Positions 7,434 to 64,000 of a DNA stretch of 64,000 bases are shown here, in pieces. Position numbers and translations under genes: made by a program. A model generated the notes under the pieces. It saw only the letters and a list, made by a program, of their open reading frames with translations, did no database searches and was not told where the DNA came from. The DNA comes from Aphanomyces cochlioides (taxonomy: Eukaryota > Oomycota > Saprolegniomycetes > Saprolegniales > Verrucalvaceae): assembly GCA_019828595.1 (NCBI GenBank), contig JAHQRK010000004.1, positions 3,782,001 through 3,846,000 of the forward strand. Direction: 5' to 3'. Numbering within the stretch: position 1 is the first letter of the stretch; each line of letters starts with the position of its first letter.

Positions 7434-7440
<7 letters not shown>

Positions 7441-7452
<12 letters not shown>
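7441..7452 (+). promoter_or_regulatory. tRNA-Phe internal A box, also the LINE target
   Basis: TAGCTCAGTTGG matches the pol III A-box consensus. In other units the LINEs enter between its A and G (tRNA positions 14 and 15), splitting the box in the half-tRNA left behind. Confidence 0.85.
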
Positions 7453-7481
<29 letters not shown>

Positions 7482-7484
7482 ACT

Positions 7485-7495
7485 GGTTCGATCCC
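7485..7495 (+). promoter_or_regulatory. tRNA-Phe internal B box
   Basis: GGTTCGATCCC fits the B-box consensus GGTTCGANNCC bound by TFIIIC. Present in all seven intact copies and absent from all half copies. Confidence 0.9.
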
Positions 7496-7506
7496 GGTTC
7501 GTGGCA

Positions 7507-8557: not shown

Positions 8558-8571
8558 GCCGCGATAGCTCA
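8558..8571 (+). pseudogene. Half tRNA-Phe (nt 1-14) left of LINE A1
   Basis: GCCGCGATAGCTCA, the first 14 nt of tRNA-Phe, joined directly to the 3' end of A1. It is the left arm of the target duplication. Confidence 0.9.
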
Positions 8572-8589
8572 ATGTCAATGGGGAGTCTA

Positions 8590-8631
8590 TTTGTAGTTAA
8601 TGTAAACTACAAACTAATATTGCCCGAAGGC
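8590..8631 (-). promoter_or_regulatory. Family A 3'-tail double hairpin
   Basis: In the element RNA (minus strand), GCC-TTCG-GGC (8622-8631) forms a UUCG tetraloop hairpin. It is followed by a 9-bp stem made from 8590-8598 and 8605-8613. Family B has the same two-hairpin layout with different sequence, so this is probably the signal recognised by the ORF2 protein for target-primed reverse transcription. Confidence 0.6.
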
Positions 8632-8649
8632 TCATCCCATTTCCAACTG

Positions 8650-9503
8650 CTAGGCTGAATTGGAAATCAATTTGGCTTTTCGTTTTCTTGATTCGCTTCG
8701 ACGTTGGGACTTCGATTTCTTCGGTGTTTGTAAGCTAACACGGCGAATATGTCGGATAAAACTGACTCTTGGCATCTGACCCAGGGGGTATACATTTTCA
8801 TTGTCTTGGATCATACATAGACTTCGGTCTATGCAGCGCTTGTATCGCTTGGCGAGGACCCAGCAATGGGATGTTGAATCAGTGACAGAAACAACCAAGA
8901 ATTCTCCGTCAGGCTCATCCAATATCGCTCTACAGATATCACGAATTGGATCACCCACCGATTGCTTGAGCAGTTGACGGGAGAATATGGCGTCGTTGTA
9001 GTGGAATCCATGTGTGTATGCCAGCTTGAGAAAATCATGCATCTTGGAAGGGGGAATGCCCGCGTCTTGAGGAACTCCATGGGCCTCTTTGAAACCCGAA
9101 ATGACTTCTTCGCTGAGCTCAAAATTGGAGACATTCAAATTGGTAGCAACGATTCGGATTGCAGCCGCAAGACAAGATTTGTCACTGTTGTTGCCAATTT
9201 CTAGCCACAGAGGATCCATCGCTCGAAATTCAGCAAGCGTTGGGGCGAGACCAGTGTTCGTGAGGAAGTGGGCTCCAGCTTGTCGCCATCGTTGGTACAT
9301 CGCCACGGCTTCTTGACACCCGCTGAGGTCTTTTTCGTCGAACCAGTCTTTGTCGAGTCCATCCGGGCGTTGAAACTTCCAGTTGACTTGGTATTGAATA
9401 GTTGAAATTCGATTTCGCATTGATGCCACTTCGCGGTGGTCATCGATAAACAACACTTCATCGATGTCATCATCGTCGGTTGGAATTCGCAGAGTGCGTG
9501 GGC
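8650..9503 (-). pseudogene. ORF3 remnant in A1 (chromodomain plus protease-like)
   Basis: Encodes from about residue 121 to the end of the 404-aa ORF3 of A3, with no internal stop. It keeps the chromodomain-like and Cys/His/Asp protease-like regions but has lost its start through 5' truncation. The open frame runs past the truncation into the adjoining tRNA half, which is fortuitous. Confidence 0.85.
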
Positions 9504-9517
9504 GCTGCGATAGCTCA
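9504..9517 (+). pseudogene. Half tRNA-Phe left of LINE C1, C3-to-T variant
   Basis: GCTGCGATAGCTCA: tRNA nt 1-14 with T at position 3. The same T occurs in the intact tRNA on the other side of C1 (18157), proving they are the two arms of one duplication. Confidence 0.9.
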
Positions 9518-9527
9518 GTGTACAATC

Positions 9528-9589
9528 GCGTATATTAAATTTAATTATACGCTAAATAATAATGACCGTCATTAATCACTCTTGAGTGA
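9528..9589 (-). promoter_or_regulatory. Family C 3'-tail with three hairpins
   Basis: Three consecutive inverted repeats: GCGTATA/TATACGC (9528-9552), AATGA-CCG-TCATT (9561-9573) and TCACT-CTTG-AGTGA (9576-9589). They are conserved in C2 (60088-60149) although the neighbouring 3' region has diverged strongly. Likely reverse-transcriptase recognition structure. Confidence 0.6.
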
Positions 9590-11430
9590 ATAATATTGGT
9601 ACTTGTGAGATTTGAACGCAGGCAGATTTACCTCTTGAAATTTGATTTTTGTTGTATCAGTTGATACAGGTAAAAGTTGGCATCTTGACACGTCGCATGT
9701 GCTGTCGATCGTGGTCTTCATGTCGTGTAACAACATGGATGGTCTTGGGTGATGTGGACATGGGACAGACTTGTCTTGTCTTCGACGTCAGATGGGTGCG
9801 GAGTAATCTTGGACTGGCTTCAGAACGTCCACATGTTGTCTTTGACTAATCTTGTACGGGGCCATGGGCACCAGATGATGTGTGAACTAATCTTCCACTG
9901 GATTTTTCTTGTCGCAGCGTGACATCGTCGTTGATTGTTGGCTTGTCACCGTCGATTGTGCAGTCGTCATGGGTGCCTTGATGTCGCATGTTGTTGAGTC
10001 GACGATCGTATCTTGGTCTTTGTATGGTCTTGGTTGAGAAGTTTCACTGGATTTTTTCTTGTCGGACTTGAAAATTTTGAGTGGCTGAGAACTTCCTTGG
10101 GGATTTGAAGTTTGGTTTGGAGTCATTTTTCGATTTCCTCGCTGCCGTGATGCTGTCCCTCTGTTGTCGTGCCGTGGCTGCCGTTGTTGTCCGTGTCTGC
10201 TGTGGCCTTGCTGTGGCTGTGCTGTCTTCGTTGCCGCTTGCTGTGTCGTGTCTGCGTGCTGTGCTGTGTGTGTTGCGTCCTGCTGCGTTTGTCGTCGTTC
10301 CCGCTGCGAGCTGTCGCCATTGTCGCTGTGGTGCCGTGATGCTTCTGTCGTTGCTGCTGCTGCTGTGTTGTCGTGCCCTTGCCGCTGCTTTGTCGTCGTG
10401 CCGCTGCCGGATGTTGCCGCGATTGTTGTCCGTGGGTGCGAAACGCGTTGGGTGCGCTGCGACACGCGTTGGTTGAAGAAGGCGACTGGCTCAAGGAAGG
10501 CGTTCAAGCAAGGCGTTCAAGACCCAAGAGCGGCTGGAGCGAAACGCGAGGAGTCAAATCTCCGTTCCTTCGATGGTGTCGGGACGCGGGGCCTCACAAG
10601 TCTTTCGACTCGCGTTTTGATTCGGCTTGCTCTTGGTGAAGACGGCGTCCAAGGCGTTCAAGGAAGAAAGCGCGAAGACTTTGACAGCCTTGGCTTGTTG
10701 AGACGGACCGTTCCGCGAAGGTGCATTGTTGGCTGACCCCCTTCATGCACTGACGCGGGGCGAAGGACCTGGTCAGTCCGTGTCCGTGGATATGAGTCGA
10801 GTGCTTTGGGTTTGTCTCTTGGTTGTCCCTTTTGTGGCGCTTGTGCCTTTGATGTGGCCTTTGGCCTTTCGATCTGGGTGTCCCCTTTTTCCTGATTTCC
10901 TAAACTCCTTTGATGGAGCCCCCGGGGGTAGCGTCCAAGTGAAGACTTCTTCGAAAAAGGCGGTTGGGCTCTTGTTGCTTTGATGACTTGTTTGCGTAGG
11001 TTGGCGAGCGATCGAGTGATTTTTTTTTGCGTTGCGTTTGTTGGCCATGGCGGCGAATTTTGGCGTTGCGTTTGTTGGCACTGTTGGCGTTGAAGAAAAG
11101 CGTGAAGAAACGTGGAAGTCAGCCCACGAGCGCAGCTACGGGCGGTTTTTTGCTTGACTTTGCCGCCGTTGGCACTTGGATTTCGCGAAGGTCGCTTGAA
11201 ATCTCCAAGTCGCCGCAAAAAAGCTCGCTGATTTTATGCGAAGCGCTGCCCAAAACTTTAATTCCGTAATTCACACTTGAATTGCCGATGTTTCTTGTTT
11301 TTTGTAGTTGACTTTCAAACTTGGCCGCATTTGACTTCAAAATTTGGAGTCACTTTCAAGTAAGTTGTCAAAAAGTCATACATGTTTCTAACTTGTCTTG
11401 TAGATGACTTGTCCAGGACAGTACTCAACA
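9590..11430 (-). other. Long 3' region of LINE C1
   Basis: About 1.8 kb between ORF2 and the hairpin tail, strongly GT-rich on the plus strand around 10140-10460. Minus-strand open frames (9887-10507, 10658-11218) are low-complexity (Q/T/R/H-rich), and their frames are not kept in C2, so I treat the region as untranslated. Confidence 0.6.
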
Positions 11431-14400
11431 TCAAGTCAACTTGAAGATGGCTGGATGTTTGTCCAAGAATCTCCGGTACGAACTGCGTTGGCTCAGCAAA
11501 CCAAGAGTCGCCATGGTTTGTTGAGAGGTTGCTGGGTCTTGATTCATTCGAAGCCATCGGCGAACATTGGACGCCCAAAATGTCAAGGCAACATCGTTCA
11601 ACCCAGGCAAGTAAGGTGGCTTGGTTGTATCAAATTTAACTTTGTTGCGATGTGTCCATAGGAGATGAAGAATGCTGCAAACCAGCATAAACCAAAGACG
11701 ATGGAGAACGTTTCGATATCGTTGCCACCGCTGAGCGACTTGGAAGGCATCGATGTTGGTAATCCAGTCCCAGGTAAAGCGAACGCCAAATATACTCCAT
11801 GCCTCACGATGCTGTAGCCACACACGACAAGTAACTGGGCAGTCCAAGAACAAGTGCTGGCGGGTTTCACGCGCAAAGCAGTTGGGATAACCACATCGGA
11901 GTGCACTCGGGTCAGTGGCCTCTTTGTACTTGAACTTATCACCCACTGGGATCATATCGTAGAGAATTCTTGTCCAAAGGTCTGCTTGGACCGGCGTCAC
12001 AAGACTTGAAAAGGGCTTTACGAAGGTTGAAAGGTAATTGGCGACTTTGGTATGATTCTCACGTGTGTTGGAACGCAAGGGATGAGGTCGCGTCAACATG
12101 GGAGCGTGAAAACTCACTCGCTTGATTACTTTGGTTGTCCATGAGTTGAATGGTACGTCGGTGTCTCCTTGTCGACCTGAAATCACCATTTGAGGCGTAA
12201 GGTCGTTATCAACCGGTGCGTCGAGCTGCTTGTTGGCCTGAGTCCAAACATTCGTTGCAATTAGTGTCACCAACTTGTAGAAGTATCTGAAGGACGTCGG
12301 CACGGGTAATTCCTCGACAAAATGGTCCAAATGATCCTCCATTGACTCGCGAAACTCTTCGTAGGTTGGCCACGTTCTTGCTGGCGTCAAGAAGTCTTCC
12401 AAGCAATGTACGCCCCTCCAAGCAAGGTGTCTGTACCAGTCGCGATGGTTTCGAAGCGTGACTGCAAGCGATGACATCCCATCTCGACCCGGGACTTGGA
12501 AAAGCGGGTGCGACGACAGCCACAATGGCATTTGCGTCATCTGATTCAACGTAGGTTCATGTGGCGTCTTGTTTGTGAGCGGAATTTGACTCCAATGCTT
12601 CCAAATATCATTCCAAAGAGGTGAGATCAAGTCCCGCTGCACAAGCTTATTGTTTGCGCTAGGATTGTACAGCATGAAGTCCCAAGTTGTTGCCCGCGAG
12701 TATGGGTACATACAGCGCTTCAATCGATCTGCTGGTAAGAGTGCCCACAATTCAGGATTGTCCTGATTGGTTTGGACTAGAAGTTGAAGACGTGTGATGC
12801 GTTGCTTTCGAATCACCGAAGCGATATGCGGCACTTTGAAGCCTGTCTTTGAGTCATGAAGCAAGCCACTTGGGGCCAAGGCCAGATACTTGTCTTGGGC
12901 ATGTGTGCGCCGACTCAAGACAAACTTGTTCACCATCGACTGCCATTTTTGCACGGTATGGTTTGGAATTGGAAGAACCATGGTGTAATGCCAAAGTTGT
13001 GATAGGATCATTGTGCTCACAAGCAATCGTCTGCCTTTGAGGGTTCTTGCTCGACACGCCCACGTGGTAAATGACTTGTAGAACTTGTCGGTGATGGCAT
13101 TGATTTGAAGCATAGGGTCCAACTTGTGTCCCAACTCGATCCCAAGGTACTTGATTGGCCTTCCACTTGGTACCATGGTCAATCTTGGGTGTTCAAAAAC
13201 TGATTGAGTATTGTCTAGGGTCAAGACCTTGCTTTTGTTGCGATTGAGCTTGGCGCCGGAATGCCGACAGAATTCATTCGACGAGCTCCAGTTGCGCTTC
13301 CAAGTCTCCAACCGAGCTTGAGATGAGCGTGGTATCGTCCGCGAAGAGAAGAACCGATGCGATCCCCGAGTCCGAGAAAGCGTAGCCGTATTCGGGGTGG
13401 TTGCGAAGCATTTGAGCGAGTGGTTCGATCGTCAATACAAAGAGCATCGACGACAATGGATCGCCTTGCTTGACACCTCGAGACGGGTAGAATGGATCGG
13501 TAAGTCTGCCATTGATGTTCAAGCTGACTTGGGTTTGGTTGTAGAGTAACTTAACCCAGTCAATGAACTGATCTCCGACATTGAACTTCTTGAGAACGGC
13601 AAACATGAATTCATGATTCACACGATCATAGGCCTTTTCAAAGTCCAAGAACATTGCATAGGCTTCTTGGTTGAAGGTCGTGCAGTGGTGTTGAAGATCT
13701 TGAAGGAAGATAACATGGTCATGGATGCGTCTGCCCTTGACAAAGCCATTTTGCCCAGGTTGAATGATCGCTGGTAGGACTTGAGACATTCTGTACGCTA
13801 AAGCGCGTGATAGGACTTTGACTTCGACCGGAATCAAGGCTATGGGTCTGTAGTTCGCAGGGTTGCGGCGGTCACCACCTTTGAACAGCAATGATATCGC
13901 CGACCATCTCTGCGATTCTAACATGATGCCTTGCTGGAGCTGATGATTGAAGACTATCGACAAAATTTCGCCAAACAAGGTAGGATGCAATTGATAGAAT
14001 CCAGCTGAGAACCCGTCAATTCCAGGCGACTTGTGAGGATTCATCGTCTTGATGGATTGCGCCAGTTCTTCAGTCGTTAATGGGGCGTCCAACATGTCCG
14101 AGTCGTCTTGGGGTAGGTGTCTTTCGAGCACAGTTAAGAATTGGTCTTTGGCATGTTGACTTGTAGGTTGAAAGTCGCCTTCGCTCATCACTGCAGACCA
14201 ATGACGAGTGAATGCAGCGTGGATTTCTTCGGGTATGGCAGTGACATTCCCATGTTCATCATAACAATCAACGATAGGAATGGAGAACTGCCTTGCCCGG
14301 GGTTTTCGAAAGAAGTGACTTGTCGGAGCTTCATTTTTGGTTGCGTGGAAGTCGAAACTCAAGTCTGCTTGGTGTTGTTTCAAGTCTCGCGTCTTCGTCT

Positions 14401-15557
14401 CATACTGTGCCTTTGCAGTATTGAGAGCTGCTTCGGTGAGTCGTCCTCGATGATGCTTTAACTGAGCTTGTAACCATAGGATTTTTGCTTCCTGGAGTGC
14501 ATTCCTTTGACTTGTGATTATCCGAGCATGGTACTTTTGAAGAAAGCGCTTGGTGCGGCGTTGCCATTGCGTCCACAAGACTCCTGGGCGGTCCGAAACT
14601 TTCAAGCGCTCGAGGAGGTCTCTTGCCTCAGACACGATTGCTTCTCGGACTTCTTGGATCGTCAGAAGTTCTTTTGGCAGCTTCCAATAGCTTTTAACCC
14701 GCGTTGTTTGCACCGGTTGGAGCTCCACTTTATGCCACATGTGATCCGTGTTTGCTGTAGGTTCAAAGTATTCGCCAGTGGAATACATTCGGCACAAGGC
14801 GGAGTTCAGGAAGATGTAATCAAGACGATTGAGCCGCTTGGGTGAAGAGTAAACACACTTTGTAGGGTTGAAAGATCTCCAAGCGTCAACGACATCAAGC
14901 TCTTGAAGCCAAGCGAAGCAAGACTGCCTGTTGACTTGGTGGTTCGAGTTGGTGGAGCCTCTGGAATCCAATGTTCGATCCATTGGAAGGTTGAAGTCTC
15001 CCATGACGACGTGTTTGGATCCCATGGGAAAGTTTCGTGGCAAAGCCTCGAAGAAAGCGTCGCGCTCGCTGTCGACAACAGGTGCGTAAACATTGTGGTA
15101 GTAGATGGGGTCTTCTCCCCACATTGAACTGACAACCATGTAGCGATCTTCGACGTCGTATTGGCGTTCGTGTTGAAGTGAGTCGAAGCCAGGAATCGTA
15201 TGATGGAAGACCATGGCGACGCCACCGGATCTGTATTGCTCAAGTTCTTCTCCATGCAGCCGATGGTCGTTGGCAGCGATAAAGTAGTTCTTGTGGCCAA
15301 GCGCATGATCAAGGTGAAACTTGAACGTGGAGAACATCTTCTCACTGGCAAATTTTGTTTCTTGTAGGGCAATAATCTCGTGCCTTGAGATCATCGAGTT
15401 GACGAGTTGGTTTCCGTTGTCTCTCGCCAGTCCGTTGATGTTGGCGGTGACGATAGACAAGTTGGTAAGTTTTGAGTTGGGAAACGTGGCTGATGGATGT
15501 TGTAGAGGGGGTTGATGGTTGGGATGTGTTGCGGTTGCTTGGACTGAGGCCGCGGAG
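11431..15557 (-). pseudogene. LINE C1 ORF2: APE endonuclease and reverse transcriptase, frameshifted
   Basis: Two overlapping frames, about 15557-13274 and 13311-11431, form one ORF2 broken by an apparent one-base insertion near 13276, just after the RT active site. The N-terminal APE domain shows TANINGL, LQETKF, HNVYAP, MGDFN, NRLDY and a terminal DH. The RT shows LDFEKAYD, GVKQGDPLS and FADD. The C-terminal part has a Cys/His motif (CGYPNC...HLFLDC) as in L1/Tx1-type ORF2. Its product would nick the tRNA gene and reverse-transcribe the element. No ATG lies between the ORF1 stop and the first APE motif, so initiation must be non-AUG or coupled to ORF1. Intact function is unlikely because of the frameshift, unless it is a sequencing error. 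Confidence 0.85.
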
Positions 15558-15560
15558 ACC

Positions 15561-18095: not shown

Positions 18096-18156
18096 GGTGC
18101 GCGGGGTACCTTACTTTGGCAGTTGACTTGAGTGGTTGACGGCAAAAGTAAAAGTT

Positions 18157-18159
18157 GCT

Positions 18160-18204
<45 letters not shown>

Positions 18205-18229
18205 ACTGGTTCGATCCCGGTTCGTGGCA
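18157..18229 (+). tRNA. tRNA-Phe (GAA), array copy 2, C3-to-T variant
   Basis: Complete tRNA rebuilt at the 5' end of C1 by target duplication. T3 opposite G70 sits next to the usual G4-T69, giving two consecutive wobble pairs in the acceptor stem, so function may be weakened. The rest is identical to copy 1. Confidence 0.95.
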
Positions 18230-51786: not shown

Positions 51787-54700
51787 TTAATTTGGGGCTG
51801 AAGGTTGGAGCGCGAGCAAAGTCGGGTACTTGGCTACCAGTGGGCGATAGACAGGTTGTCTATGCAAAGTATTGATTGCTGAAATTGCTTCCACTCGTTG
51901 AGGGCTGTCAACTTCTTGGAGGCGAAGCCATCTGCGGATCGATGCATGCCATCGGATGAAGCTGACTTCTTGCCAAATTTCTGGCGGAGGCGGCTTCTTC
52001 GATTCGAACTTGGCGGCGTTGTGCGTTGTCCAAATATAGTGAAGGTTGGAAGCACACAGAAGAGCCCAGAGCACAAACAGTATGTCTTGAAGCTGGCTAC
52101 CGCGTTCGTTGACTTGAAAGCGGTCGATGTTGGTGATGGCAGTCCAATCGAAATTGACACCGAAGCATCGCCAAGCGGTCGCGTGAAAACGCCAAAGGGG
52201 ATACACGCGAGAGCAGGTGTGGAAGGCGTGGTGTTGGTTCTCCGGTGCGTCGCAATTGGTATAGACACAGCAAATTACGTCTGGCTGCTGAGGTTGCAAG
52301 TAGAACAAGCGCGAGTTGACAGGCAGCATGTTGAACAACAGTCGAAACCAAACGTCGCCATGGAGGGGAGGCGGCCAACGGCATGTTTTGCGGATGAGTC
52401 GCACGTAGGTCGCAATATCTTGTTGCTCGACGCGGGACGATGTCGCCACTGGGTGCGGTTTTCCATCCGAAGGGGCGTGATGCGCCAAACGTGATACGAG
52501 TCGCTTGGGCCAACGCTCGAAGGATAGCAATTGATCTTTGAAAAGTGCCTTGAAAGGGTGACTTGTTGTATCGATATCGGTCAAAGCAGTTCCAGTTCGA
52601 ACGCCAGACGTGCGGAGGACTTGGTCGAATATCTTGGTGAGGTGGCTATAAACTTGACCAGCACGTTCGGGTGCTGCAAATCCCATCGCGCCGTTCGCTT
52701 GTAACGTCACTTGTGCCGCACGGTTGTTGGATGACAGTCGATCAATAAACGCAGCTCTTGTAGGCCATGTCCCTTGCCGTGTCAAGAAGTCTTTGAGGCA
52801 GTGGAAACCGTTTTGAGACGCATGTCTACACCATCGACGACACAGAGCAGTCTTCACGACATTTGATGTAGCACCCGCAGGACCAACTTGCAGAGCGGGG
52901 TAGGATGTCAGCCACACGGGGAGGTTCAAAAGTTCTTCGAGGCTTGGTGGCGAAGCGGTTCGCTTGGCCATAGGTGTGGCGGCCCATTGATGCCAAATGT
53001 CGTGCCAAAGAGGATGCAGCTCCCACAAAAACAACCACTTGGAGCTGTGGTTGGGGAAGTACGTGAGAAAGTCGAACGGGTGGGTGTCGCGATACAGCTT
53101 GTTCATGACACGGGAAAATTGTCTCTTGACAAGCAACTTCCATGGGGCAAATGTGTTGGGTGAATTGGGCTGCATCAAGAGTTGGAGCCGCAGCAGTCGC
53201 TGAGTCCGAAGCTTCGAAGCCACATGCGGAATACCGAGGCCGAGTTTTTGATCGAACTGCCACTTGCGGCAAATAGTTGAGCGATGATGGTCGGTGATTT
53301 GCGTCTTCCGACCAAGGATGTACTTGTTGACCATTCTTTGCCAAACGGCAACCATCGTTGGAGGCACATACACTGCAGCCGTGACATGCCATAACAACGA
53401 CAACAACATGGTCGATACGATGAGTTTGCGGCCTTGGATGGTTCGCGCACGACTTCCCCACGTTTGAAACGCAGCCAGAAACTTGTCGTTCAGTTGCTGG
53501 ACTTGAAAATCGCGCGGCAGTCGGTGGCCAAAGAGAATACCAAGGTATTTCACTGGCTTCTCGCTCGGCAAGACGTTCAAGAGGCCACCATCGTCGATGT
53601 CTTCGATATCGAGATTGTTGTTGAGCGCCAAAGTCATGCACTTGGCAACGTTGAGACGAGCTCCAGACACAGAGCAAAAGTCTTCGACAATTGCCATTTG
53701 CTCGACCGCCGCTTGGAGGGATGACGAGAGTAGAGTCGTGTCGTCGGCAAAGTAGATGCTCGTCAGTGAGTCTCCATTTGGAAGGGGAATACCAAAATCA
53801 GGAGATCCGCGTAGCATTTCGCCGAGTGGCTCGAGGTAAAGTACGAAGAGCATGCACGATAGGGGGCAACCTTGCTTGACTCCGCGGGTAGGCCGTATGG
53901 TAGGGCCAAGACCGTCGTTGAAAATGATCTGGACCAGAGGCGTATTGTAAAGCAACTGAACCCAAGACACAAATGTGGGACCGATGTTCATCTCCTTGAG
54001 TACGTCGAAGAGAAAGCCTTGGTCAACCATATCGTATGCCTTGGAAAAGTCGAGAAACGTCGCGTAGTAGTCGTGGTCTTCATTGGTACAGAAAGTCTGC
54101 AATGCTTGTACCAGCATCACGTGGTCGTGCAAGCGACGGCCAGGGACAAAACCAGCTTGGCTTGGGTGAGCGAGGTATGGGGCAACTTGTGCAAGACGGT
54201 AGGCCAGCGCCCGCGATAGAATCTTGACTTCAACCGACATGAGAGTAATCGGCCGATAGTTGCCAGGGTCGCCTCTGTCTCCAGCCTTGAACAAGAGCGC
54301 CACTGCACTTCGGCGTTGTTGGAGCAGGAGGTGACCGTGATGGGTGAGTTGGTAGTTGAACACCTTGAGCAGGATTTGGGCGAATACGTCCGGGGAGACT
54401 TGAAAGAAAGCTGCAGGCCAGCCGTCTGAACCAGGAGACTTGTTCGGGTTCATAGACTTGAGCGCGCCGCACAGGTCTTCCGCCGTGAGAGGACTTTCCA
54501 GAGCGTCGCGCTGTTCTTGAGTGAGACGTCGAGTAATGGCTCGAATGATAGCTCGGCGACGGGCCCGATTCAACGGTGGTTGGTCTCTTGGAGTGACCAT
54601 GATGTTTTTCCAATGAGACGTAAAACCAGCCTTGACTTCAGACGGGTCAGTCGACGTTACACCGTTGATTGTCACGGACGAGAGCGGCACTTTGATCCCC

Positions 54701-55941
54701 TTGGGTCGACGAAAAAAGTGACTGGTACCTCGCTCGTTGACGTTGGCGTGAAAGTCGAATTGCTGATCCAGGTTGAACTGTCGGTACTCGCTGCGGGCAG
54801 TGTCAAGGGCTTGACGGGCGGTATTAACAATGGATGTCTCAACGAGTCCCATGTCGAATGCTCGGCGGGAAGTAAGCCACTTCATCTTGAGGCTGTTGAG
54901 TGTGTACTTCATCGAGTCAATGTACTGGCGATGACTGACTTGGAGACGCTTCTTCATTCTCTTCAACCAGCCGTACCACTTTGCGCCAAAGTTTTGAGTG
55001 TCGTCTGCGCGCATCTCGTCCAAAAGTTGATTGGCTTCGGCCTTGATCGCTGCGACTACTTGAGGGTTCTTTAAGAGCTCACGGGGGAGGCGCCAGTAAC
55101 TTCGGTCGGGAGCTCGCTGCTCGCAGGAGAGGACCACTTTGTGTTCCATGTGGTCGCCTGCAAAGCTGCTTGGGGAATAGCTTGAACGTGCGTACGTTTG
55201 AGCGACGATATCTTGGTCCACAAACAGGTAGTCGAGGCGGTTGCTTCGACCAGGGCCGCTGTAAACGCGCTCGTTGGGGTGGTGCATCCTCCACGCATCG
55301 ATAACACCAAGTGCTGAAAGCCAGGCAATGCATTCCGCCTTACCAGCGTTGTGGTCTTGGCGAGGTCGAGTCGCGTCCAGATGCTCTTCCAGGGGTAAGT
55401 TGAAATCGCCTCCGACAAAGTGAATGCTGTCGTCTTCAAAGTCGCGAGGCAGATCGTCGAAAAACGGTGCTCGAGAGTGAGCGATAACCGGGGCATAGAC
55501 GTTGTGAAAGTACACAGGAACGCCGTCCCACTGAGTTCGAACAACCATGTATCTTCCAGGTCGGTCATGGGTGGTCAAGTGTTGCAGGTCGAGGAATCCA
55601 GGCATGGATCCATGGAAATACGATGCCACACCGCAGCGCCGATTGTTGAGTGAGTCGACGCGATCAGTGCGGAGATCGTTGGTGAAGAGCTTGTATTTGC
55701 CAACGCCTACTTCGTTGTTGAGGTGGAGTTGGAAGGTTTCGAGATGTTTGATGTTATTGATTTTGGTTTCTTGAAAGAAAACGGCTTGGGTCGGAATTTG
55801 GAGTCGCCGCGCCACAAGATGTCCGTTGTCTTTCAGCCCATTGAGGTTGGCAGTGGTCAGTTCGAGTATGGGGAACTTGGTGAAGAGACCGGCCGCGACC
55901 ACCTTAGCCACGGAACGCGACAGACGTTGCGTTCGCAACAT
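51787..55941 (-). CDS. LINE B3 ORF2: APE endonuclease and reverse transcriptase (1384 aa)
   Basis: Same length and domain order as B2 ORF2, with all APE and RT motifs and the C-terminal Cys/His motif present. A few substitutions only (for example KKPPPPE for KEPPPPE near the C-terminus). No stop or frameshift, so coding-competent. Confidence 0.9.
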   Translation of the reverse strand: MLRTQRLSRSVAKVVAAGLFTKFPILELTTANLNGLKDNGHLVARRLQIPTQAVFFQETKINNIKHLETFQLHLNNEVGVGKYKLFTNDLRTDRVDSLNNRRCGVASYFHGSMPGFLDLQHLTTHDRPGRYMVVRTQWDGVPVYFHNVYAPVIAHSRAPFFDDLPRDFEDDSIHFVGGDFNLPLEEHLDATRPRQDHNAGKAECIAWLSALGVIDAWRMHHPNERVYSGPGRSNRLDYLFVDQDIVAQTYARSSYSPSSFAGDHMEHKVVLSCEQRAPDRSYWRLPRELLKNPQVVAAIKAEANQLLDEMRADDTQNFGAKWYGWLKRMKKRLQVSHRQYIDSMKYTLNSLKMKWLTSRRAFDMGLVETSIVNTARQALDTARSEYRQFNLDQQFDFHANVNERGTSHFFRRPKGIKVPLSSVTINGVTSTDPSEVKAGFTSHWKNIMVTPRDQPPLNRARRRAIIRAITRRLTQEQRDALESPLTAEDLCGALKSMNPNKSPGSDGWPAAFFQVSPDVFAQILLKVFNYQLTHHGHLLLQQRRSAVALLFKAGDRGDPGNYRPITLMSVEVKILSRALAYRLAQVAPYLAHPSQAGFVPGRRLHDHVMLVQALQTFCTNEDHDYYATFLDFSKAYDMVDQGFLFDVLKEMNIGPTFVSWVQLLYNTPLVQIIFNDGLGPTIRPTRGVKQGCPLSCMLFVLYLEPLGEMLRGSPDFGIPLPNGDSLTSIYFADDTTLLSSSLQAAVEQMAIVEDFCSVSGARLNVAKCMTLALNNNLDIEDIDDGGLLNVLPSEKPVKYLGILFGHRLPRDFQVQQLNDKFLAAFQTWGSRARTIQGRKLIVSTMLLSLLWHVTAAVYVPPTMVAVWQRMVNKYILGRKTQITDHHRSTICRKWQFDQKLGLGIPHVASKLRTQRLLRLQLLMQPNSPNTFAPWKLLVKRQFSRVMNKLYRDTHPFDFLTYFPNHSSKWLFLWELHPLWHDIWHQWAATPMAKRTASPPSLEELLNLPVWLTSYPALQVGPAGATSNVVKTALCRRWCRHASQNGFHCLKDFLTRQGTWPTRAAFIDRLSSNNRAAQVTLQANGAMGFAAPERAGQVYSHLTKIFDQVLRTSGVRTGTALTDIDTTSHPFKALFKDQLLSFERWPKRLVSRLAHHAPSDGKPHPVATSSRVEQQDIATYVRLIRKTCRWPPPLHGDVWFRLLFNMLPVNSRLFYLQPQQPDVICCVYTNCDAPENQHHAFHTCSRVYPLWRFHATAWRCFGVNFDWTAITNIDRFQVNERGSQLQDILFVLWALLCASNLHYIWTTHNAAKFESKKPPPPEIWQEVSFIRWHASIRRWLRLQEVDSPQRVEAISAINTLHRQPVYRPLVAKYPTLLALQPSAPN

Positions 55942-58903
55942 CTCCCAGCATGAGTGTCTGAGTGTCGGGTTGGAACATCACTTGGTTGTCGAAGGTGGGG
56001 TCCAGGGAGCCAGCCTCATGGAATTCCAGGATCGTGGTCAAGACGTATCGCGACTTCTCGTCTTCGCCGGCATACAACGTTTCCATGATATTCCAAATCA
56101 AGAGGCCGAAGCTCGTGTCAAGCAATATGGCAGATAGCGATACGCCCGACAAACAGCGGGAGCCCAAATGAGAAGCCAGTGCAGTGACCGGGTACTTGGT
56201 AGAGGCCACGATCGCAGCATCACTGTTGTAGTACGTTGGAGCATGAATGGCCAAGAGAACTTCTGCCACAGCCAACACTTCTTCCAGGTCGCCGCGGTGG
56301 AGGGAAATCTCGTCGCCGTCAATGGTAGTATCGATGAAGTCGATGTTCTTGAATAGCTCGATGTTGCTGAAGATGGCTTGAACGTGCTCGCGGGTCATAC
56401 GCACACCCCACGTCAATGAGTACAGCTGGGAGAACGGTTTGTCTCCACCCCAAGTCGCTCGAAGCCACCGATGGAGGAGGCGTTGTCTCACAAAGTACTC
56501 AAAGCATGCACGGTCTTCATCAAAAAGTCGGTGCAGTTGCAAGCCAAATTCAATCGGGGAACGCTCGAGATGGCTACACAGCATGTCGACGCGGCCGTCG
56601 TTGATGAGTTGGGCAAGGTTGAACGAGCTGTTGGTCACTGCATCTTCGACTTGGGTTGAGAGATGCAATGGAACTTTGGCTGTCTTGGTGTCGAGGTCTT
56701 GTAGTTCGGCGAGAATTTCGTCAAGAGACATTTCTATGCGCTTGGGAACGCCATCTTGGATCTTGGTGCCGCCGACAAATTGACCGGACGTAGGGAGGTG
56801 GGGAGGGTCATCCGAGACGTCCAGCTTGGGTACAATCGTTGAGATCTTGTAATCGCCAAACTGAGCAACGTGTTCCTCGGGGTTGACACACACACGTTCG
56901 TCGAGGGCTTCAAACATGTTGGGCGAAATCCAAGAGCGGCCATGCTCGGGGGAATCCACTTGCTGTTGCGTCTTCTTGCGCTTGCCTCTCGACGCCTTGA
57001 CGCCAGTCCACTGCGGAGGGTTGGCTTGCGCAGTTTTCCGACGTTTTGGCGCCTTGGGAGTCGAAGAAGGCGGGTTGGTTGGGCTGGGAGCTGGCTTGTT
57101 CAATCCATATTGGCGGGACGTTGCATCAAGGTCCAAACGAACCAAGTTCTTGTCACGAAAATACCACCCTTGACCGTACACGCGGAGACAACGGCCCTTG
57201 AAAAGAATTTCTTCGACGAGACGGCCGTCGCGCTGTATGGTCGTTGGTACGGAGGTTCCTTCAAAGTAAAGGCGGTACCGAGAGCTCGCCATACCGCTTG
57301 AAGAGGAAACGTTGGGGTAGGAGCCCCACAGGAAGCGTGGCTCCAACTTGGTCATGACGTCGAAGATCAGGCGCTCTTCGTCTTGATCTTGAAGGCCTTG
57401 AGGGATGTCCATGAAAAATCCGCCGAGGACGTGCGGAACGTTCATCGTGAAGTGTTGGGACGAGCCATCTCGAGCGACTTGAATCTTAAACGCGATGCCT
57501 CGCAGCTTCGTCATCGCTTCGTGAGAGGCAACACCCCACTTGAGCATGCGGTTCGGGATGTCCTTCTCGCATCTCACAATGTCAGCAATCGCAGTGTCGA
57601 GGCCGAGGGCTTGGTTGTCGAAAAGGATCGATGCCATGGCAGCTGAAACATCGATGGTCTTCGTGTGTGCACCCGTGGGCATCTGCAACCAGCCGACGAT
57701 GCCGCGCGCCGAGTGCTTCTGGATCGGGAGGGTGTCTTCAAACGTGAGGGTTCCAGCAGCACGCTTGCGAAGGAGGGGTTCGAGTTCCTCCATCGTGGGC
57801 TGGTAAGGAGCAACGTCCTTGGTCTTGATGGCCTTGGCAGACTGAGACCGCTGTTGCGCTTGGAAGGCCCATACGTCGTTGGGGGCCTGGCGGTTGTTGG
57901 GTTGGCCACGGCCAGGTGTCTGGGCTCCGCCAGATTGAGAAATGTTTTCCAAATGCGATCCGGGTGAAGCCTGAGACGACGGCTGGCGGACTGAGTGAGA
58001 GTCCGAGTCGTGCGTCAGACCAACACTCAAGCGTGCGTCAGAGGCTTGGTCTTGTCCGGACCCTGTCCCATGGTGGACAGAGTCACACGTTTGACCTTCA
58101 CTCGCGTTGGACTTCGAGAAGCTTCCATGGGTGACTTGGTCTTGAGTATTCCCATGACCAACACTGGCCACAGGGTTGTTCGCGATTGTTCCAGATCTTG
58201 CCCGATGATTCTTCGAGAAGAGACCATCACTCATGGAGCGACTAGTCTCGATGGGATCTTGACCTGTCGCCAGAGTGGACTTGTCGCTCGGGGGATTCTT
58301 CGAGAAGGGACCTTCACTCAGGGATGGACTGTTCTCGAATCTTCCTTGACATGTCGTCATGTTGACGTCGGTGCTTGAGCGAGTCTTCGAGAAGCCACTA
58401 TCACTCGTCGAGAGAACATTCTCGAAAGGAACAGAACCCAACGGAGTCTTGCCAGGCAAGCCACCATCACTCACGATGGACGTGGTTGATGGAGATTCTT
58501 CGGGCAAGGTCGTTGACGTCATGAGCACATCTTCCGAGGTTGGAACGCCGTCTTGCCAGGCTTCGTCGCAAGTGTCAGAGGTCGTTGGATCATTCGCGGG
58601 ATCGCAAGCCTTCGTCGAGCGAGTCACAGGCAAGGGTTCAAAACGGCGCGGTTTCGAAGGGGTTGCACGTTGACGTGGAAACGGAACGCGCGTTGGAGTA
58701 GGGAGCGGATTCGTAGACGCGTCATGATGCGAAGCGTTGGAAGCATCGTCGACGTCCTCTTCCAACGACGACGCCATGTCGGTATCGCTTGGGGATGGGT
58801 CAGCAACGACGATGACGTCCATATCGCTGGGGCTGGACGCCGAGGGAGAGAACGCGGAGGAGCAAGATGGGGCACGAGGGTTGGTCGAGCGGGTAGCAAC
58901 CAT
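55904..58903 (-). CDS. LINE B3 ORF1 protein (999 aa)
   Basis: Same as B2 ORF1 but with one LE pair fewer in the TKLEPRFLW stretch, which matches the length in family A. The ATG at 58903 supports the equivalent start chosen for B2. N-terminal G-x-FSK repeats present. Confidence 0.8.
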   Translation of the reverse strand: MVATRSTNPRAPSCSSAFSPSASSPSDMDVIVVADPSPSDTDMASSLEEDVDDASNASHHDASTNPLPTPTRVPFPRQRATPSKPRRFEPLPVTRSTKACDPANDPTTSDTCDEAWQDGVPTSEDVLMTSTTLPEESPSTTSIVSDGGLPGKTPLGSVPFENVLSTSDSGFSKTRSSTDVNMTTCQGRFENSPSLSEGPFSKNPPSDKSTLATGQDPIETSRSMSDGLFSKNHRARSGTIANNPVASVGHGNTQDQVTHGSFSKSNASEGQTCDSVHHGTGSGQDQASDARLSVGLTHDSDSHSVRQPSSQASPGSHLENISQSGGAQTPGRGQPNNRQAPNDVWAFQAQQRSQSAKAIKTKDVAPYQPTMEELEPLLRKRAAGTLTFEDTLPIQKHSARGIVGWLQMPTGAHTKTIDVSAAMASILFDNQALGLDTAIADIVRCEKDIPNRMLKWGVASHEAMTKLRGIAFKIQVARDGSSQHFTMNVPHVLGGFFMDIPQGLQDQDEERLIFDVMTKLEPRFLWGSYPNVSSSSGMASSRYRLYFEGTSVPTTIQRDGRLVEEILFKGRCLRVYGQGWYFRDKNLVRLDLDATSRQYGLNKPAPSPTNPPSSTPKAPKRRKTAQANPPQWTGVKASRGKRKKTQQQVDSPEHGRSWISPNMFEALDERVCVNPEEHVAQFGDYKISTIVPKLDVSDDPPHLPTSGQFVGGTKIQDGVPKRIEMSLDEILAELQDLDTKTAKVPLHLSTQVEDAVTNSSFNLAQLINDGRVDMLCSHLERSPIEFGLQLHRLFDEDRACFEYFVRQRLLHRWLRATWGGDKPFSQLYSLTWGVRMTREHVQAIFSNIELFKNIDFIDTTIDGDEISLHRGDLEEVLAVAEVLLAIHAPTYYNSDAAIVASTKYPVTALASHLGSRCLSGVSLSAILLDTSFGLLIWNIMETLYAGEDEKSRYVLTTILEFHEAGSLDPTFDNQVMFQPDTQTLMLGDVANATSVAFRG

Positions 58904-58939
58904 ATTGTCAGATAGCGTAGAGTGGTACTGCGGGGTAGC

Positions 58940-58987
<48 letters not shown>

Positions 58988-59012
58988 ACTGGTTCGATCC
59001 CGGTTCGTGGCA
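58940..59012 (+). tRNA. tRNA-Phe (GAA), array copy 7
   Basis: Complete, identical to copy 1, rebuilt at the 5' end of B3. Confidence 0.97.
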
Positions 59013-60063: not shown

Positions 60064-60077
60064 GCCGCGATAGCTCA
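60064..60077 (+). pseudogene. Half tRNA-Phe (nt 1-14) left of LINE C2
   Basis: GCCGCGATAGCTCA joined to a family C 3' tail. Confidence 0.9.
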
Positions 60078-60087
60078 GTGTACAATC

Positions 60088-60149
60088 GCGTATATTGAAT
60101 TTAATTATACGCTAAATAGTAATGACCGTCATTAATCACTCTTGAGTGA
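60088..60149 (-). promoter_or_regulatory. C2 3'-tail with three hairpins
   Basis: Same three inverted repeats as C1: 60088-60112, 60121-60133 and 60136-60149. The changes relative to C1 lie outside the stems (for example TTGAA for TTAAA in the first loop). Confidence 0.6.
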
Positions 60150-62419
60150 ATAATATTGGTGCTTGTGAGATTTGAACTCAAGAAGTTTTACCTCTTGAAA
60201 CTTGATTTCTGTTGTATCAGTTGATACAGTGCAATGTTGACACTTGACACGTCGAATCTTGGACTTGGGTGAGGGTCATCATGTTTCGTGACAAGGTGAC
60301 TGGTCTTGGGTGTTGTAGACATGGGACAGAAGTGTCTGTTCTTCGTCATCAGATGGCTGTGGAATAATCTTGGACGGGGCCATCATCTGGAGAACTCCCA
60401 AATGTTGGCTTGACTCATCTTGGACGGGACCAGTGCCATAGGAAATATCCACATGTTGGTTGGACTCATCTTGGACGGAGCAGATTTCTTGTCTCAATGG
60501 CGCGTCATTGTCGGAACATGGGTGCGCTGTGTCCAAATGTTTCTTCGGCCACATCTTGTATCTTGATTTTTGTATAGGGCGTCTTGGAGTCCACTCGTTG
60601 GGTAGTGTGAAATTCTTGAGGATGAGATTGGAGAACTTCCTTGTGGATTTAATGGCTGCGGGTTCATTTTCCGATTTGCCTGCTGCCCAACACACCGTCA
60701 GGCTGCCTCTCCGTTGCCTCGCTTTGGTTGCTTGCCTCTCGTTTGCGTTCCTTCTCGTCCGTGGTTTGGCCTTGCTTGTCCGACGTTGTTCCCTCTGCCT
60801 TGAAGCTCGACCTGCCTCGTTGTGTTCCTGCTTTGCGCCACACTTGTTGCTGCGTCTCTCGTGTTCTCCTGTCTCGCTGTTCGATCGTCGTTGTTGCCGT
60901 CGCTGTCGTCTCTGCCGTGTGGCTGCTCGCTTGTCTCTGTCTTGGCCGTGTCGCTGTCTCTGTCGTGTCTGCCGTGTGGCTGCTCGCTTGTCTCTGTCTT
61001 GGCCGTGTCGCTGTCTCTGTCGTGTCTGCTGTGTGATTGCTCGCTTGTATCTGTTGTGGCCGTGTCGCTGTCTCTGTCGTCTCTGCCGTGTGGCTGCTCG
61101 CTTGTCTCTGTCTTGGCCGTGTCGCTGTCTCTGTCGTGTGATTGCTCGCTTATCTCTGTCTTGGCCGTGTCGCTGTCTCTGTCGTGTCTGCCGTGTGACT
61201 GCTCGCTTGTCTCTGTTGTGGCCGTGTCGCTGTCGCTGTCGTGTCTGCCGTGTGGCTGCTCGCTTGTCTCTGTTTTGGCCGTGTCGCTGTCGCTGTCATC
61301 TCTGCCGTGTGGCTGCTCGCTTGTCTCTGTTTTGGCCGTGTCGCTGTCGCTGTCGTCTCTGCCGTGTGGCTGCTCGCTTGTCTGCTGCTACGATGGGCGT
61401 TTCCAAGGAAGAATTTCAAGGCGTTGAAGACATCAAGGCGTTCAAGACTTGGTTTTTTGAAGCTATGGCTCCGAATGGCGACCATCCTGTGTACTTCGCT
61501 CGTCGGAGGAAGGGGTGGTAGAAGGAGTCTGAACTGCCAGCGATGGGGGCCTTCCTGGAGGGCTCTCTACGCATATGGACGTCTTCTCGCAATGACCCCG
61601 GTCTGAGGGTAGCGGTTGACTTGCTTCGACATTTTTTGGCCTCAATTCATGGAGCCGGACAGTTCTGCGGAAGTGTATGTTGGCTGACTCCCTTCATGCA
61701 TGGATGCAGGGCTAAGAACCTGGTCAGTTCGTGTCCGTGGAAGTGGATTGAGTGCTTTGGGTTTGCCTCTTTGTGGGTTTGTCTCTTTATGGCTTTATGC
61801 CTTTCGGCCTTTGGCCTTGATTTTGGGTGTCCCTTTCTTTTTACTCCTTTGTTGGAGCCCCCGGGGGTAGCGGTCAAGTCAAGACTTCGTCGGAAAAGGA
61901 AAAGGAGGTTTGGCGACTTTGGCTTTGATGACTTGTTTGTGTAGGGTGGCGAGCGCGCGCGATATTTGCTTTTTGTGTTTGTTGGCGATCAAGTTTGGCG
62001 ATTTTCGACTTCAAGAAAGCGCGAAGAAACGTGGGGGTTAGCACACGAGCGCAGCTATGGGCGGCCTGTTCACCAACTTTCGGTAAGTTTCTTCTTTGTT
62101 TTTGTGGCTTGACTTTTGCTTAGTTTGCTTTTGGTTTGCGACGAAACCTTCTGAAAATCGCTAAGTCTTCAAGAAATTCTCGCCGATTTCACGCGAAGCG
62201 CTGCCCAAATTCTTAATTTTGTAATTCAGCCTTGAATTACCAATTTTTCTTGTGTTTTTTGGTTTGATTTCAAGTTTGCCTTGGCTGCAAGTAAGTTGGT
62301 CAGCTAGAATCACTTCTAACTTGAAAATTTAGTTTGAATTTGCATTGGATCGATCAAGTTCAAATCCACTCTTGAAATTTGGAGCGGCTTTATGTTGGCT
62401 GAAGAAGGCGAGTCGATTT
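60150..62419 (-). other. Long 3' region of LINE C2
   Basis: About 2.3 kb between ORF2 and the hairpin tail. Patches align with C1, but reading frames are not kept, so I call no protein. Contains a 57-bp minisatellite (60911-61383). Confidence 0.55.
60911..61383. repeat. 57-bp minisatellite in the C2 3' region
   Basis: About eight and a half head-to-tail copies of a 57-bp GT/CT-rich unit starting TCTGCCGTGTGGCTGCTCGC. Unit starts include 60911, 60968, 61025, 61082, 61187, 61244, 61301 and 61358; one unit (61139-61186) has lost 9 bp. Because 57 is divisible by three, several frames stay open, giving 19-residue repeats without other coding support. Confidence 0.85.
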
Positions 62420-64000
62420 TTATGAAGTTGATCCTCCGCGTCCATGACTTGCAAACGCCTTGGTATGTCGTTTGAAATATTCCTTGTATTGAGTTTGTCG
62501 TTTTAGGACAACAAGAATGCGGTTGACGGTTTGGAGCGTCTGCTCATCGTTATTTTGACGAAGCCATCGGCGAACGTTTGAACTCCAAAACGTGAACGCG
62601 ATATCATTGAGAGCAGGTATGTATGGTGTTGGAGCATTGTCGAATTTGACTCGGTTGCGGTGTGTCCATAGGAGATGAAGGATGGTGCACATCAACATGA
62701 ACCATAACTGGTGCAACAAGTCCTTGTGCGAAGACCAACGCCTTGCGACTTGAAAGGAGTCAAGATTTTCAATCCAATCCCAACTGAAGCGTACTCCGAA
62801 TGGACCCCAAGCTTCTCTGTGAGGTAACCAAACACTGCGGATCCGTCGGCAATCCATGAATAGATGCTGCTTAGTCTCGCGTTCGTAGCACTGGGGATAG
62901 CAGCATTGTACAGCATTGGGGTGAGCAGATTCCATGAATCGAAACTTGTCGCTAACGGGAAGAATGTCATAGATAGCACGAAACCAAACGTCCGCCTGAA
63001 CTGGTGTAACAATCTTGGACAATGGCTTGACGTATCTCGACAGGTAAACGCTGATCGTTTTCTTGTCTGGTCTCATTGATGTTTCTAGGGGATGCTCCTT
63101 CGTCATTGGCGGTGCATGGAAGGTTATCTGCTTCAGTATCTTGGCTGTCCAGGAACAGAAAGGTATGTCTTGTTCATTGTGTCGAAAGACAATGAAGCTT
63201 TGTTGTTCAGGACTACGTGGAACTGCACCTGCAACCGGCACGTCAGCCTGAGTCCAAACATCGGTTGCCATTGAGGTCAAGAGCTTGTAGAAGTGTTGGA
63301 AACTCGTTGGAATTGGTGAGTCATCGACAAAGTCGTCTTCGAGTGCGGTCATCATGGCTTTGAATTCGTCGTAGGTTGGCCATGTCCTTGTTGGAGTCAA
63401 GAAATCTTGCAAGCTTTGAAAGCCACTGCGGGCCAAGTGACGATACCAATCGCGATGATTTTTCAACTTGATCGCCAAGGAAGACGTCCCCTCTCGACCG
63501 GACACTTGGAACAGTGGGTGCGACGACAACCAAATCGGCATTTGGATCATCTGATGAATTGTAGGTTCATGTGGCGTTTTGGCAGTCATTGGAATTTTGG
63601 CCCAATGCTTCCAAATGTCTTGCCATAATGGCGACAGCAAATTGCGTTGGACAAGCTTGTTGTTGAGCGATGGATGGTATACCAAGAAATCCCACCGATC
63701 ATTACGAGAATATGGGCTCATACATCGGCGCAATCGATCTGAAGGTAAAATTGCCCACGATTGCGATGTATCATGCTCCTCTTTGACTAGAAGCTGGAGC
63801 CGTATGAGTCGTTGTTTGCGAATAGTTGAGGCTATGTGAGGCACTTTCAAGCCAATTTTTGGGTCGTGCACAAGGCCACCAGCAGCAAGAGCCAGATATT
63901 TTTCTGTCGTTTGAGTCCTGCGACTGAGAACAAATTTGTTCACCATGGATTGCCACTGCTGAATGGTACTGTCTTGAATTGGTAAAACCATGGTGTAATG
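62420..64000 (-). CDS. LINE C2 ORF2, C-terminal part, 5' end outside window
   Basis: Open frame from the right edge to the stop at 62420 (over 520 residues). It aligns with the post-RT part of C1 ORF2 (HYTMVLPI, KFVLSRRT, ASTIRKQRLIRLQLLV) and contains the Cys/His motif CCYPQC...HLFMDC. APE and RT lie beyond the window. No frameshift visible. Confidence 0.85.
   Translation of the reverse strand, partial: HYTMVLPIQDSTIQQWQSMVNKFVLSRRTQTTEKYLALAAGGLVHDPKIGLKVPHIASTIRKQRLIRLQLLVKEEHDTSQSWAILPSDRLRRCMSPYSRNDRWDFLVYHPSLNNKLVQRNLLSPLWQDIWKHWAKIPMTAKTPHEPTIHQMIQMPIWLSSHPLFQVSGREGTSSLAIKLKNHRDWYRHLARSGFQSLQDFLTPTRTWPTYDEFKAMMTALEDDFVDDSPIPTSFQHFYKLLTSMATDVWTQADVPVAGAVPRSPEQQSFIVFRHNEQDIPFCSWTAKILKQITFHAPPMTKEHPLETSMRPDKKTISVYLSRYVKPLSKIVTPVQADVWFRAIYDILPVSDKFRFMESAHPNAVQCCYPQCYERETKQHLFMDCRRIRSVWLPHREAWGPFGVRFSWDWIENLDSFQVARRWSSHKDLLHQLWFMLMCTILHLLWTHRNRVKFDNAPTPYIPALNDIAFTFWSSNVRRWLRQNNDEQTLQTVNRILVVLKRQTQYKEYFKRHTKAFASHGRGGSTS

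What the first reader, a model, noticed from the sequence alone, without database searches (positions are those of the whole stretch)
7434..64000. Nine LINE insertions at one nucleotide inside a tRNA-Phe gene array
Every LINE junction on the element 3' side reads GCCGCGATAGCTCA followed at once by the element tail (8571/8572, 9517/9518, 19294/19295, 22546/22547, 29892/29893, 33086/33087, 43484/43485, 51629/51630, 60077/60078). All nine are in the same orientation. Site-specific LINEs in rDNA, snRNA, 5S and telomeric repeats are known, and Dictyostelium TRE elements insert near tRNA genes. Insertion inside the tRNA body, within the A box, appears different from those.
Basis: partly seen in the sequence, partly recalled or inferred. 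Interest (0 to 1): 0.92.

Follow-up and report, generated by a model that had tools for sequence, protein, structure and literature searches.

The report
LINEs landing inside tRNA-gene A boxes
In the genome of a water mould, several families of jumping genes (LINEs) sit at one fixed nucleotide inside many kinds of tRNA genes, and the bases they duplicate rebuild the start of the tRNA gene beside them, which may spare the host.

Summary
The window lies in an Aphanomyces cochlioides assembly: a tandem tRNA-Phe array (1,124-bp unit) with nine L1-like LINE copies whose tails join tRNA nt 1-14 directly (8 of 9 exact, one with a substitution). They belong to at least four families. The site is not tRNA-Phe-specific. 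Genome-wide there are 510 tail matches; of 470 whose flanks were printed, 454 end in GCTCA and 440 fit identified tRNA species (11 species, 8 amino acids), right after A14 of the A box. Of 30 elements with both ends in view, 28 have 14-18-bp duplications equal to tRNA nt 1-14 or slightly more, so the tRNA gene is rebuilt at the LINE's 5' end and elements stack. His and Val-CAC tRNAs, which lack TRGCTCA but share arrays with targets, have about 122 uninterrupted 5' ends and none of the 470 insertions. This argues for A-box sequence recognition; the heptamer alone is not enough. LINEs for single tRNA genes, LINEs beside tRNA genes and A-box DNA transposons are published. An APE-type LINE using the A box as a general address and rebuilding the gene is a new variant.

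The parts
7434..7506 (+). intact tRNA-Phe(GAA), a 1124-bp unit begins here; further full units at 18157, 30825, 31949, 41223, 42347, 58940
8558..8571 (+). tRNA nt 1-14 (target copy) left of E1
8572..9503 (-). E1: family A LINE, 5'-truncated to 932 bp
9504..9517 (+). target copy GCTGCGATAGCTCA (one substitution), same as at 18157
9518..18156 (-). E2: family C1 LINE, 8639 bp; ORF1 849 aa; ORF2 frame interrupted (781 and 666 aa pieces)
18157..18229 (+). tRNA-Phe restored at the 5' end of E2
19295..22532 (-). E3: family B LINE, 5'-truncated, 3238 bp
22533..22546 (+). target duplication between E3 and E4
22547..29878 (-). E4: family B LINE, 7332 bp, open ORF1 (1018 aa) and ORF2 (1396 aa)
29879..29892 (+). 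target duplication between E4 and E5
29893..30824 (-). E5: family A LINE, same 932-bp truncation as E1 (probably an array copy of it)
30825..30897 (+). tRNA-Phe restored at the 5' end of E5
33087..41222 (-). E6: family A LINE, 8136 bp, open ORF1 (838 aa), ORF2 (1379 aa) and a third ORF
34597..38736 (-). E6 ORF2: reverse transcriptase; AP-endonuclease-like domain and zf-RVT below Pfam cut-off
41223..41295 (+). tRNA-Phe restored at the 5' end of E6
43485..51615 (-). E7: family A LINE, 8131 bp, ORF2 frame broken
51616..51629 (+). target duplication between E7 and E8
51630..58939 (-). E8: family B LINE, 7310 bp, open ORF1 (1011 aa) and ORF2 (1396 aa)
58940..59012 (+). tRNA-Phe restored at the 5' end of E8
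60078..64000 (-). E9: family C2 LINE, runs off the window

Best explanation
These are L1-like LINEs (APE-type endonuclease plus reverse transcriptase) that use the A box of tRNA genes as their address. Inferred mechanism: ORF2p nicks the tRNA sense strand after A14 (TRGCTCA^G). The 3'-OH ending in ..GCTCA primes reverse transcription of the element RNA from its exact 3' end. The other strand is cut about 14-15 nt upstream, near tRNA nt 1. Repair duplicates nt 1-14(15), leaving a half-tRNA at the LINE 3' end and restoring the full 5' end of the tRNA gene, A box included, at the LINE 5' end. The restored gene is a fresh target, so elements stack head to tail before one surviving tRNA. Shown: site, duplication, orientation, stacking, number of families, breadth over tRNA species, and the lack of insertions in two tRNA species without TRGCTCA. 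Inferred: order of nicks, direct recognition by the endonuclease, transcription of the restored genes. The confidence given is for the anatomy and the target-primed reading; for direct recognition by the endonuclease alone it would be about 0.45.
For: Tail matches genome-wide: A 203, B 224, C 83 (84 with two mismatches). The 14 nt before the tail were printed for 470: A 187 of 203, B 200 of 224, C 83 of 83. Hand count: 454 of 470 end in GCTCA (A 187, B 197, C 70), 450 of them in TRGCTCA. Four more show GCTCA followed by a repeat of the tail's first bases; eight are A-box-like variants (TAGCGCA 2, TAGCTTA 4, TAGATCA 2). 440 of 470 (A 186, B 198, C 56) carry the 14-mer of an identified tRNA species, exactly or one base off, or (the four stutters) lie on a contig with that array. 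Duplication: of 35 junctions in L001-L020 and the window, 30 had a right copy in view and 28 of those were identical over 14-18 bp. tRNA species: Phe-GAA, Thr-CGT, Thr-AGT, Lys-TTT, Lys-CTT, Asn-GTT, Ala-AGC, Ala-CGC, Tyr-GTA, Ile-AAT, Met-CAT (Thr-AGT is my reading of L019, Ala-CGC comes from a copy broken by another element). Control: a joint pattern for His-GTG and Val-CAC 5' ends has 122 matches, 100 listed (80 His, 20 Val), lying among target tRNAs; none of the 470 junctions carries their 14-mers. Against 739 uninterrupted TRGCTCAGNNGGKAGAGC, about 67 would be expected if all were hit alike (my arithmetic). Protein: best solved relative is human L1 ORF2p, E 7e-57; the endonuclease model matches AP endonucleases and L1 EN. 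A-B ORF2: pS 0.80, pN 0.24.
Against: The heptamer is not sufficient: in 262 kb, 54 TRGCTCA copies are neither tRNA/SINE heads nor element junctions and stand empty (many are copies of one site in repeated DNA), 7 of them TAGCTCAG in the Phe spacer, and no printed junction carries that spacer 14-mer. So more tRNA sequence (D arm) or Pol III chromatin is needed too. Family C is looser: 27 of 83 sites do not fit an identified tRNA species, some lie in dispersed repeats, three have no A box. 40 A and B sites were not listed. Array copying multiplies insertions, so 470 are not 470 events and the expected 67 is generous. No cleavage or expression data. The endonuclease model is of middling confidence (pLDDT 66.8, 3 sequences), and Pfam does not call the domain in family B.
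Confidence: 0.82

Rival explanations
1. Recognition step only: targeting by the Pol III machinery alone. LINE proteins bind TFIIIC or TFIIIB on tRNA genes, as proposed for Dictyostelium TRE5-A and yeast Ty3, and the endonuclease then cuts nearby.
For: The heptamer alone is not enough; A and B are found almost only at tRNA genes among the printed sites; SINE heads with A boxes are hit too.
Against: His-GTG and Val-CAC genes are Pol III genes in the same arrays and are not among the 470 printed insertions. The site is fixed to one nucleotide, whereas TRE5 and TRE3 show windows of tens of bp at a distance (PMC5006619, PMC5911963).
Confidence: 0.2
2. Recognition step only: a combination. Pol III chromatin brings the element to tRNA genes and the endonuclease then demands TRGCTCA.
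For: Explains both the empty spacer heptamers and the empty His/Val genes.
Against: Equally explained by a longer DNA site that includes the D arm shared by the targets seen (GCTCAG..GG.AGAGC). The two were not separated here.
Confidence: 0.35
3. Random or weakly biased insertion, with copies elsewhere removed by selection.
For: Genomes do purge harmful insertions; family C has some off-target copies.
Against: 454 of 470 printed junctions share GCTCA at one position in a 76-Mb genome.
Confidence: 0.03
4. One ancestral insertion per family spread by tandem-array duplication, or an assembly artefact.
For: Array copying is real: E1 and E5 share a truncation and units are nearly identical.
Against: The same families sit at the homologous site of 11 tRNA species on many contigs, with element lengths from 146 to 8639 bp and local duplications.
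Confidence: 0.03

Closest known systems
NeSL-1_TV (tRNA-Pro), LIN15_SM (tRNA-Arg), LIN25_SM (tRNA-Glu), LINEs related to the NeSL clade (PMC4640811, passages read)
   Same: LINEs specific for tRNA genes
   Different: The paper groups them with LINEs that encode a restriction-like endonuclease, each for one tRNA species; ours have an APE-type endonuclease and L1-like RT and use the A box of many tRNA species. Where in the tRNA those insert, and whether they restore it, I did not see.
Dictyostelid TRE5, TRE3, NLTR-A, NLTR-B (PMC5006619, PMC5911963, passages read)
   Same: LINEs aimed at tRNA genes, TREs with an APE domain; NLTR-A lies only 2-6 bp upstream of the mature tRNA
   Different: They lie beside the gene; TRE5-A is linked to TFIIIB and needs the B box; no fixed A-box sequence is reported in the passages I read.
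Dada DNA transposons (PMC3706591, PMC8869645, passages read)
   Same: Same place in the gene: duplications at tRNA nt 8-13 (TAGCTC) in several families, and a second hot spot at the anticodon
   Different: DDE transposase, duplications of 6-7 bp, mostly one main tRNA species per family
Tx1-clade LINEs (Mutsu, Keno, Dewa: targets in PMC3706591; that they are Tx1-clade is recalled)
   Same: Said to be APE-type with targets in small RNA genes; Dewa in the tRNA-Leu spacer
   Different: Targets differ; clade membership of ours not tested because no Tx1 reference sequences were at hand
Prokaryotic integrative elements in tRNA genes (recalled)
   Same: Insertion restores the tRNA gene
   Different: Site-specific recombinase, 3' end of the gene; analogy only

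Membership tests
L1-like (APE-type) LINE | Reverse transcriptase closest to L1 among solved relatives | tested here: met
   B: full-length L1 ORF2p E 7e-57 to 5e-56, R2 proteins E 6e-25 or worse; same order for C
L1-like (APE-type) LINE | N-terminal AP-endonuclease-like domain | tested here: met
   PF03372 E 4e-14 in C, below cut-off in A, not reported in B; L1 EN aligned in PDB searches; Foldseek E about 1e-11 to AP endonucleases and 4e-11 to L1 EN on a pLDDT 66.8 model of B
L1-like (APE-type) LINE | Two ORFs, 5' truncations, flanking target duplications | tested here: met
Tx1 clade | RT groups with Tx1, Mutsu, Keno | not tested
Restriction-like-endonuclease LINEs (NeSL group) | Restriction-like endonuclease instead of APE | tested here: not met
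   APE-type domain present; absence of a C-terminal endonuclease was not tested on its own
TRE-type targeting | Insertion at a distance from the tRNA gene, over a window | tested here: not met
   fixed site after A14
TRE-type targeting | Contact with TFIIIB/TFIIIC | not testable with these tools
   -
Dada | DDE transposase, duplications of 6-7 bp | tested here: not met
   RT and APE-type domain encoded; duplications of 14-18 bp

The most novel reading that the evidence does not exclude
An old group of APE LINEs has turned the Pol III A box into a general, renewable landing pad: the endonuclease reads the A box/D arm directly, and the distance between the two cuts matches tRNA nt 1-14, so an insertion restores its own target and costs the host little. 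The same genome holds a related LINE (D) and a SINE (E) at another place, the anticodon arm, and D's 5' end carries a sequence that completes the broken tRNA-Ala into a tRNA-like sequence.
Probability: 0.45. Interest if true: 0.82.

Novelty: new variant of a known kind. Interest (0 to 1): 0.72.

Why it matters
It gives a natural example of how a retrotransposon can live in an essential gene type without breaking it, and at least four diverged LINE families with APE-type endonucleases that share one short DNA target. That makes two open questions testable: what makes an APE-type LINE endonuclease sequence-specific, and whether tRNA-directed LINEs read DNA or Pol III factors. Site-specific, non-disruptive LINEs are also of interest as models for gene insertion.

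Tried and rejected
Rejected: tRNA-Phe specificity; pure array duplication; heptamer-only recognition; targeting of any Pol III gene alike. Led nowhere: one viral-contig scan with the family B ORF2 protein found no DNA, so target sites in other species could not be read; Pfam on the ORF1 proteins gave no match at or near a cut-off. RF00005 over the genome scored only 63 of 5429 candidates, so it is not a tRNA census. Literature searches: no title or abstract start in the listings named this system; the held library lacks most subscription journals. Of six papers (PMC4640811, PMC3706591, PMC8869645, PMC5006619, PMC5911963, PMC9584435) I saw passages, none in full.
Full report
WHERE. The window is contig C34:3782001-3846000 of a 76.2-Mb assembly in 94 contigs. 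The lengths of C34, C78 and C89 (3994282, 2878150, 2775065) equal the longest contigs listed for three proteins whose source names are Aphanomyces cochlioides AC1031, so it is that oomycete's assembly. Large tandem tRNA arrays are already described in another oomycete, Phytophthora infestans (PMC9584435, passages), so the array itself is not the news.

OBSERVATION. Seven full 1,124-bp tRNA-Phe units are present, differing by 0-3 bases, with nine elements between them. Each element's tail abuts tRNA nt 14. ORFs lie on the minus strand, so the tail is the LINE 3' end. Eight junctions read GCCGCGATAGCTCA and one GCTGCGATAGCTCA. E4, E6 and E8 have open ORF1 and ORF2; E2 and E7 have interrupted ORF2; E1, E3 and E5 are 5'-truncated; E9 leaves the window. 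E1 and E5 share one truncation point and are best read as one event copied with the array; E6 and E7 may also be array copies.

GENOME-WIDE. With up to two mismatches the tails occur 203 (A), 224 (B) and 84 (C) times. Printing the 14 bases before each tail gave A 87 of 87 and 100 of 116, B 100 of 111 and 100 of 113, C 83 of 83: 470 printed, 40 not listed. Hand count, ending in GCTCA: A 187/187, B 197/200, C 70/83; in TRGCTCA: 184, 196, 70. The other three B and one C show GCTCA followed by a repeat of the tail's first bases, each repeat ending in CA before the tail starts anew. The remaining twelve C are A-box-like variants (8), TAGGTCA (1) and three sites with no A box (ending CTCCA, CATCA, ACTCA; flanks). 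Fitting an identified tRNA species (14-mer equal or one base off; the four stutters by their contig): 186/187, 198/200, 56/83. The rest lie in SINE heads, dispersed repeats whose flanks recur (L027/L028, L029/L030) or single sites.

DUPLICATION. Among 35 junctions in L001-L020 and the window, five run out of the sequence held. Of the 30 others, 28 show identity of 14 (10), 15 (14), 16 (2), 17 (1) or 18 bp (1); one extra matching base is expected by chance in a quarter of cases. The two exceptions are E1 (11 bp, the C/T difference) and one element in L007 (9 bp) whose right end I could not settle. After the right copy, 8 continue into the next element's tail, 2 into a SINE head (L005, L020), 1 is cut off by the end of L018, and 19 into a tRNA gene. 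In 4 of those 19 (L006, L008, L011, L017) the tRNA-Ala is broken further on, in its anticodon arm, by another element. In the window the four closed stacks each end in a tRNA-Phe that ARAGORN and Rfam accept.

WHAT IS READ. Target tRNAs share TRGCTCAG and the D arm that pairs with it. Val-CAC (TCGTCTA) alternates with Thr-CGT (TAGCTCA) in L002, and His-GTG (TAGTATA) lies beside Ala in L009, L011 and L017. A joint pattern for the two has 122 matches, 100 listed: 80 His, 20 Val. None appears among the 470 junctions. The target-type pattern counts 739 uninterrupted 5' ends (it misses Thr, whose D loop is shorter). Equal use would predict about 67 insertions in His plus Val-CAC (my arithmetic; array copying makes this generous). 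Against a heptamer-only rule, of 128 TRGCTCA in 262 kb, 40 are tRNA/SINE-type, 34 precede a tail and 54 others are empty, 7 of them TAGCTCAG in the Phe spacer. So TRGCTCA looks needed and is not sufficient. The recurring CA before the tail, even at the odd C sites and in the stutters, suggests that the primer's last bases pair with the element RNA or a read-through copy of the target; this is inference.

WHAT THEY ARE. ORF2 has an RT (PF00078); an AP-endonuclease-like domain is called by Pfam in C only. Human L1 ORF2p is the best solved relative of B and C and the modelled endonuclease of B falls with AP endonucleases and L1 EN. The RT tree (unrooted, with long outlying rows such as P0035) puts A and B among close relatives that include named A. 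astaci and Thraustotheca proteins, C with an A. astaci protein, and D farther off; it does not decide whether A-C form a clade without D. A and B ORF2 are 64% identical with synonymous sites near saturation (pS 0.80, pN 0.24); A and C 42% over 746 codons; C1 and C2 59% over 516 residues. So lineages long apart share one target, by inheritance or convergence.

KNOWN AND NEW. Known: LINEs for single tRNA genes in the NeSL group, LINEs beside tRNA genes in dictyostelids, Dada DNA transposons at nt 8-13. New in what I could search: APE-type, L1-like LINEs using the A box of at least 11 tRNA species in hundreds of copies, with a duplication that gives back the gene's 5' end. Hence 'new variant of a known kind'.

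Noticed in passing
L006, L008, L011, L017, L005 (e.g. L011 minus strand from 2377): A second, related APE LINE (D; 34% identity to A in the RT) has its 5' end in the anticodon-arm/variable region of tRNA-Ala and tRNA-Val-GAC, sense to the tRNA. A tail AATATACTCAGTTAA, presumably D's (both ends of one copy were not seen), precedes the anticodon arm of Ala (L006, L009, L011, L017) and of a Thr tRNA (L019). Here the tRNA is split.
   Followed up: partly
L006, L008, L011, L017: tRNA-Ala 5' part plus D 5' end: The fusion reads as a tRNA-like of about 83-90 nt ending in CCA and passes Rfam's tRNA cut-off at 31.7-34 bits. 14 of 1000 shuffled D ends also give an ARAGORN call, and the lowest-energy fold is not a clean cloverleaf (z -2.6). 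It might supply a Pol III promoter or a processing site.
   Followed up: partly
L005 1993 and 3544; L017 minus strand 1702, 2909, 4116; L020 2424: A tRNA-headed SINE (E, head GGGAAATTGGCTCA, tail AATATACTCAATAAA similar to D's presumed tail), in the same anticodon-arm region in L005 and L017 but at a non-tRNA site in L020. Family A (L005) and family C (L020) inserted into its A box.
   Followed up: partly
window 38705-38736, 55904-55977, 15561-15619 (minus): In A, B and C ORF2 overlaps the end of ORF1 in the +1 frame (coordinates); the first ATG of the ORF2 frame is codon 111 in A, 76 in C, 13 in B. A and B share CGTGGCTAA-R-GTGGTCGCGGC at the ORF1 stop, hinting at frameshift or reinitiation.
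   Followed up: no
window 33165-34560 (minus): Family A carries a third ORF; three relatives found, two from A. cochlioides and one JGI protein. A sub-threshold chromodomain match in the JGI relative; Cys, His and Asp are among many invariant residues (a protease is my guess).
   Followed up: partly
C34:2519368, C36:171043, C36:200840, C42:110119: Tail-end stutters at the 3' junction, each unit ending in CA, as expected of repeated starts of reverse transcription.
   Followed up: no
window 1-7246: Left of the array: other sequence with a protein-kinase ORF (462-2186); the array begins inside a unit, at unit position 938.
   Followed up: no
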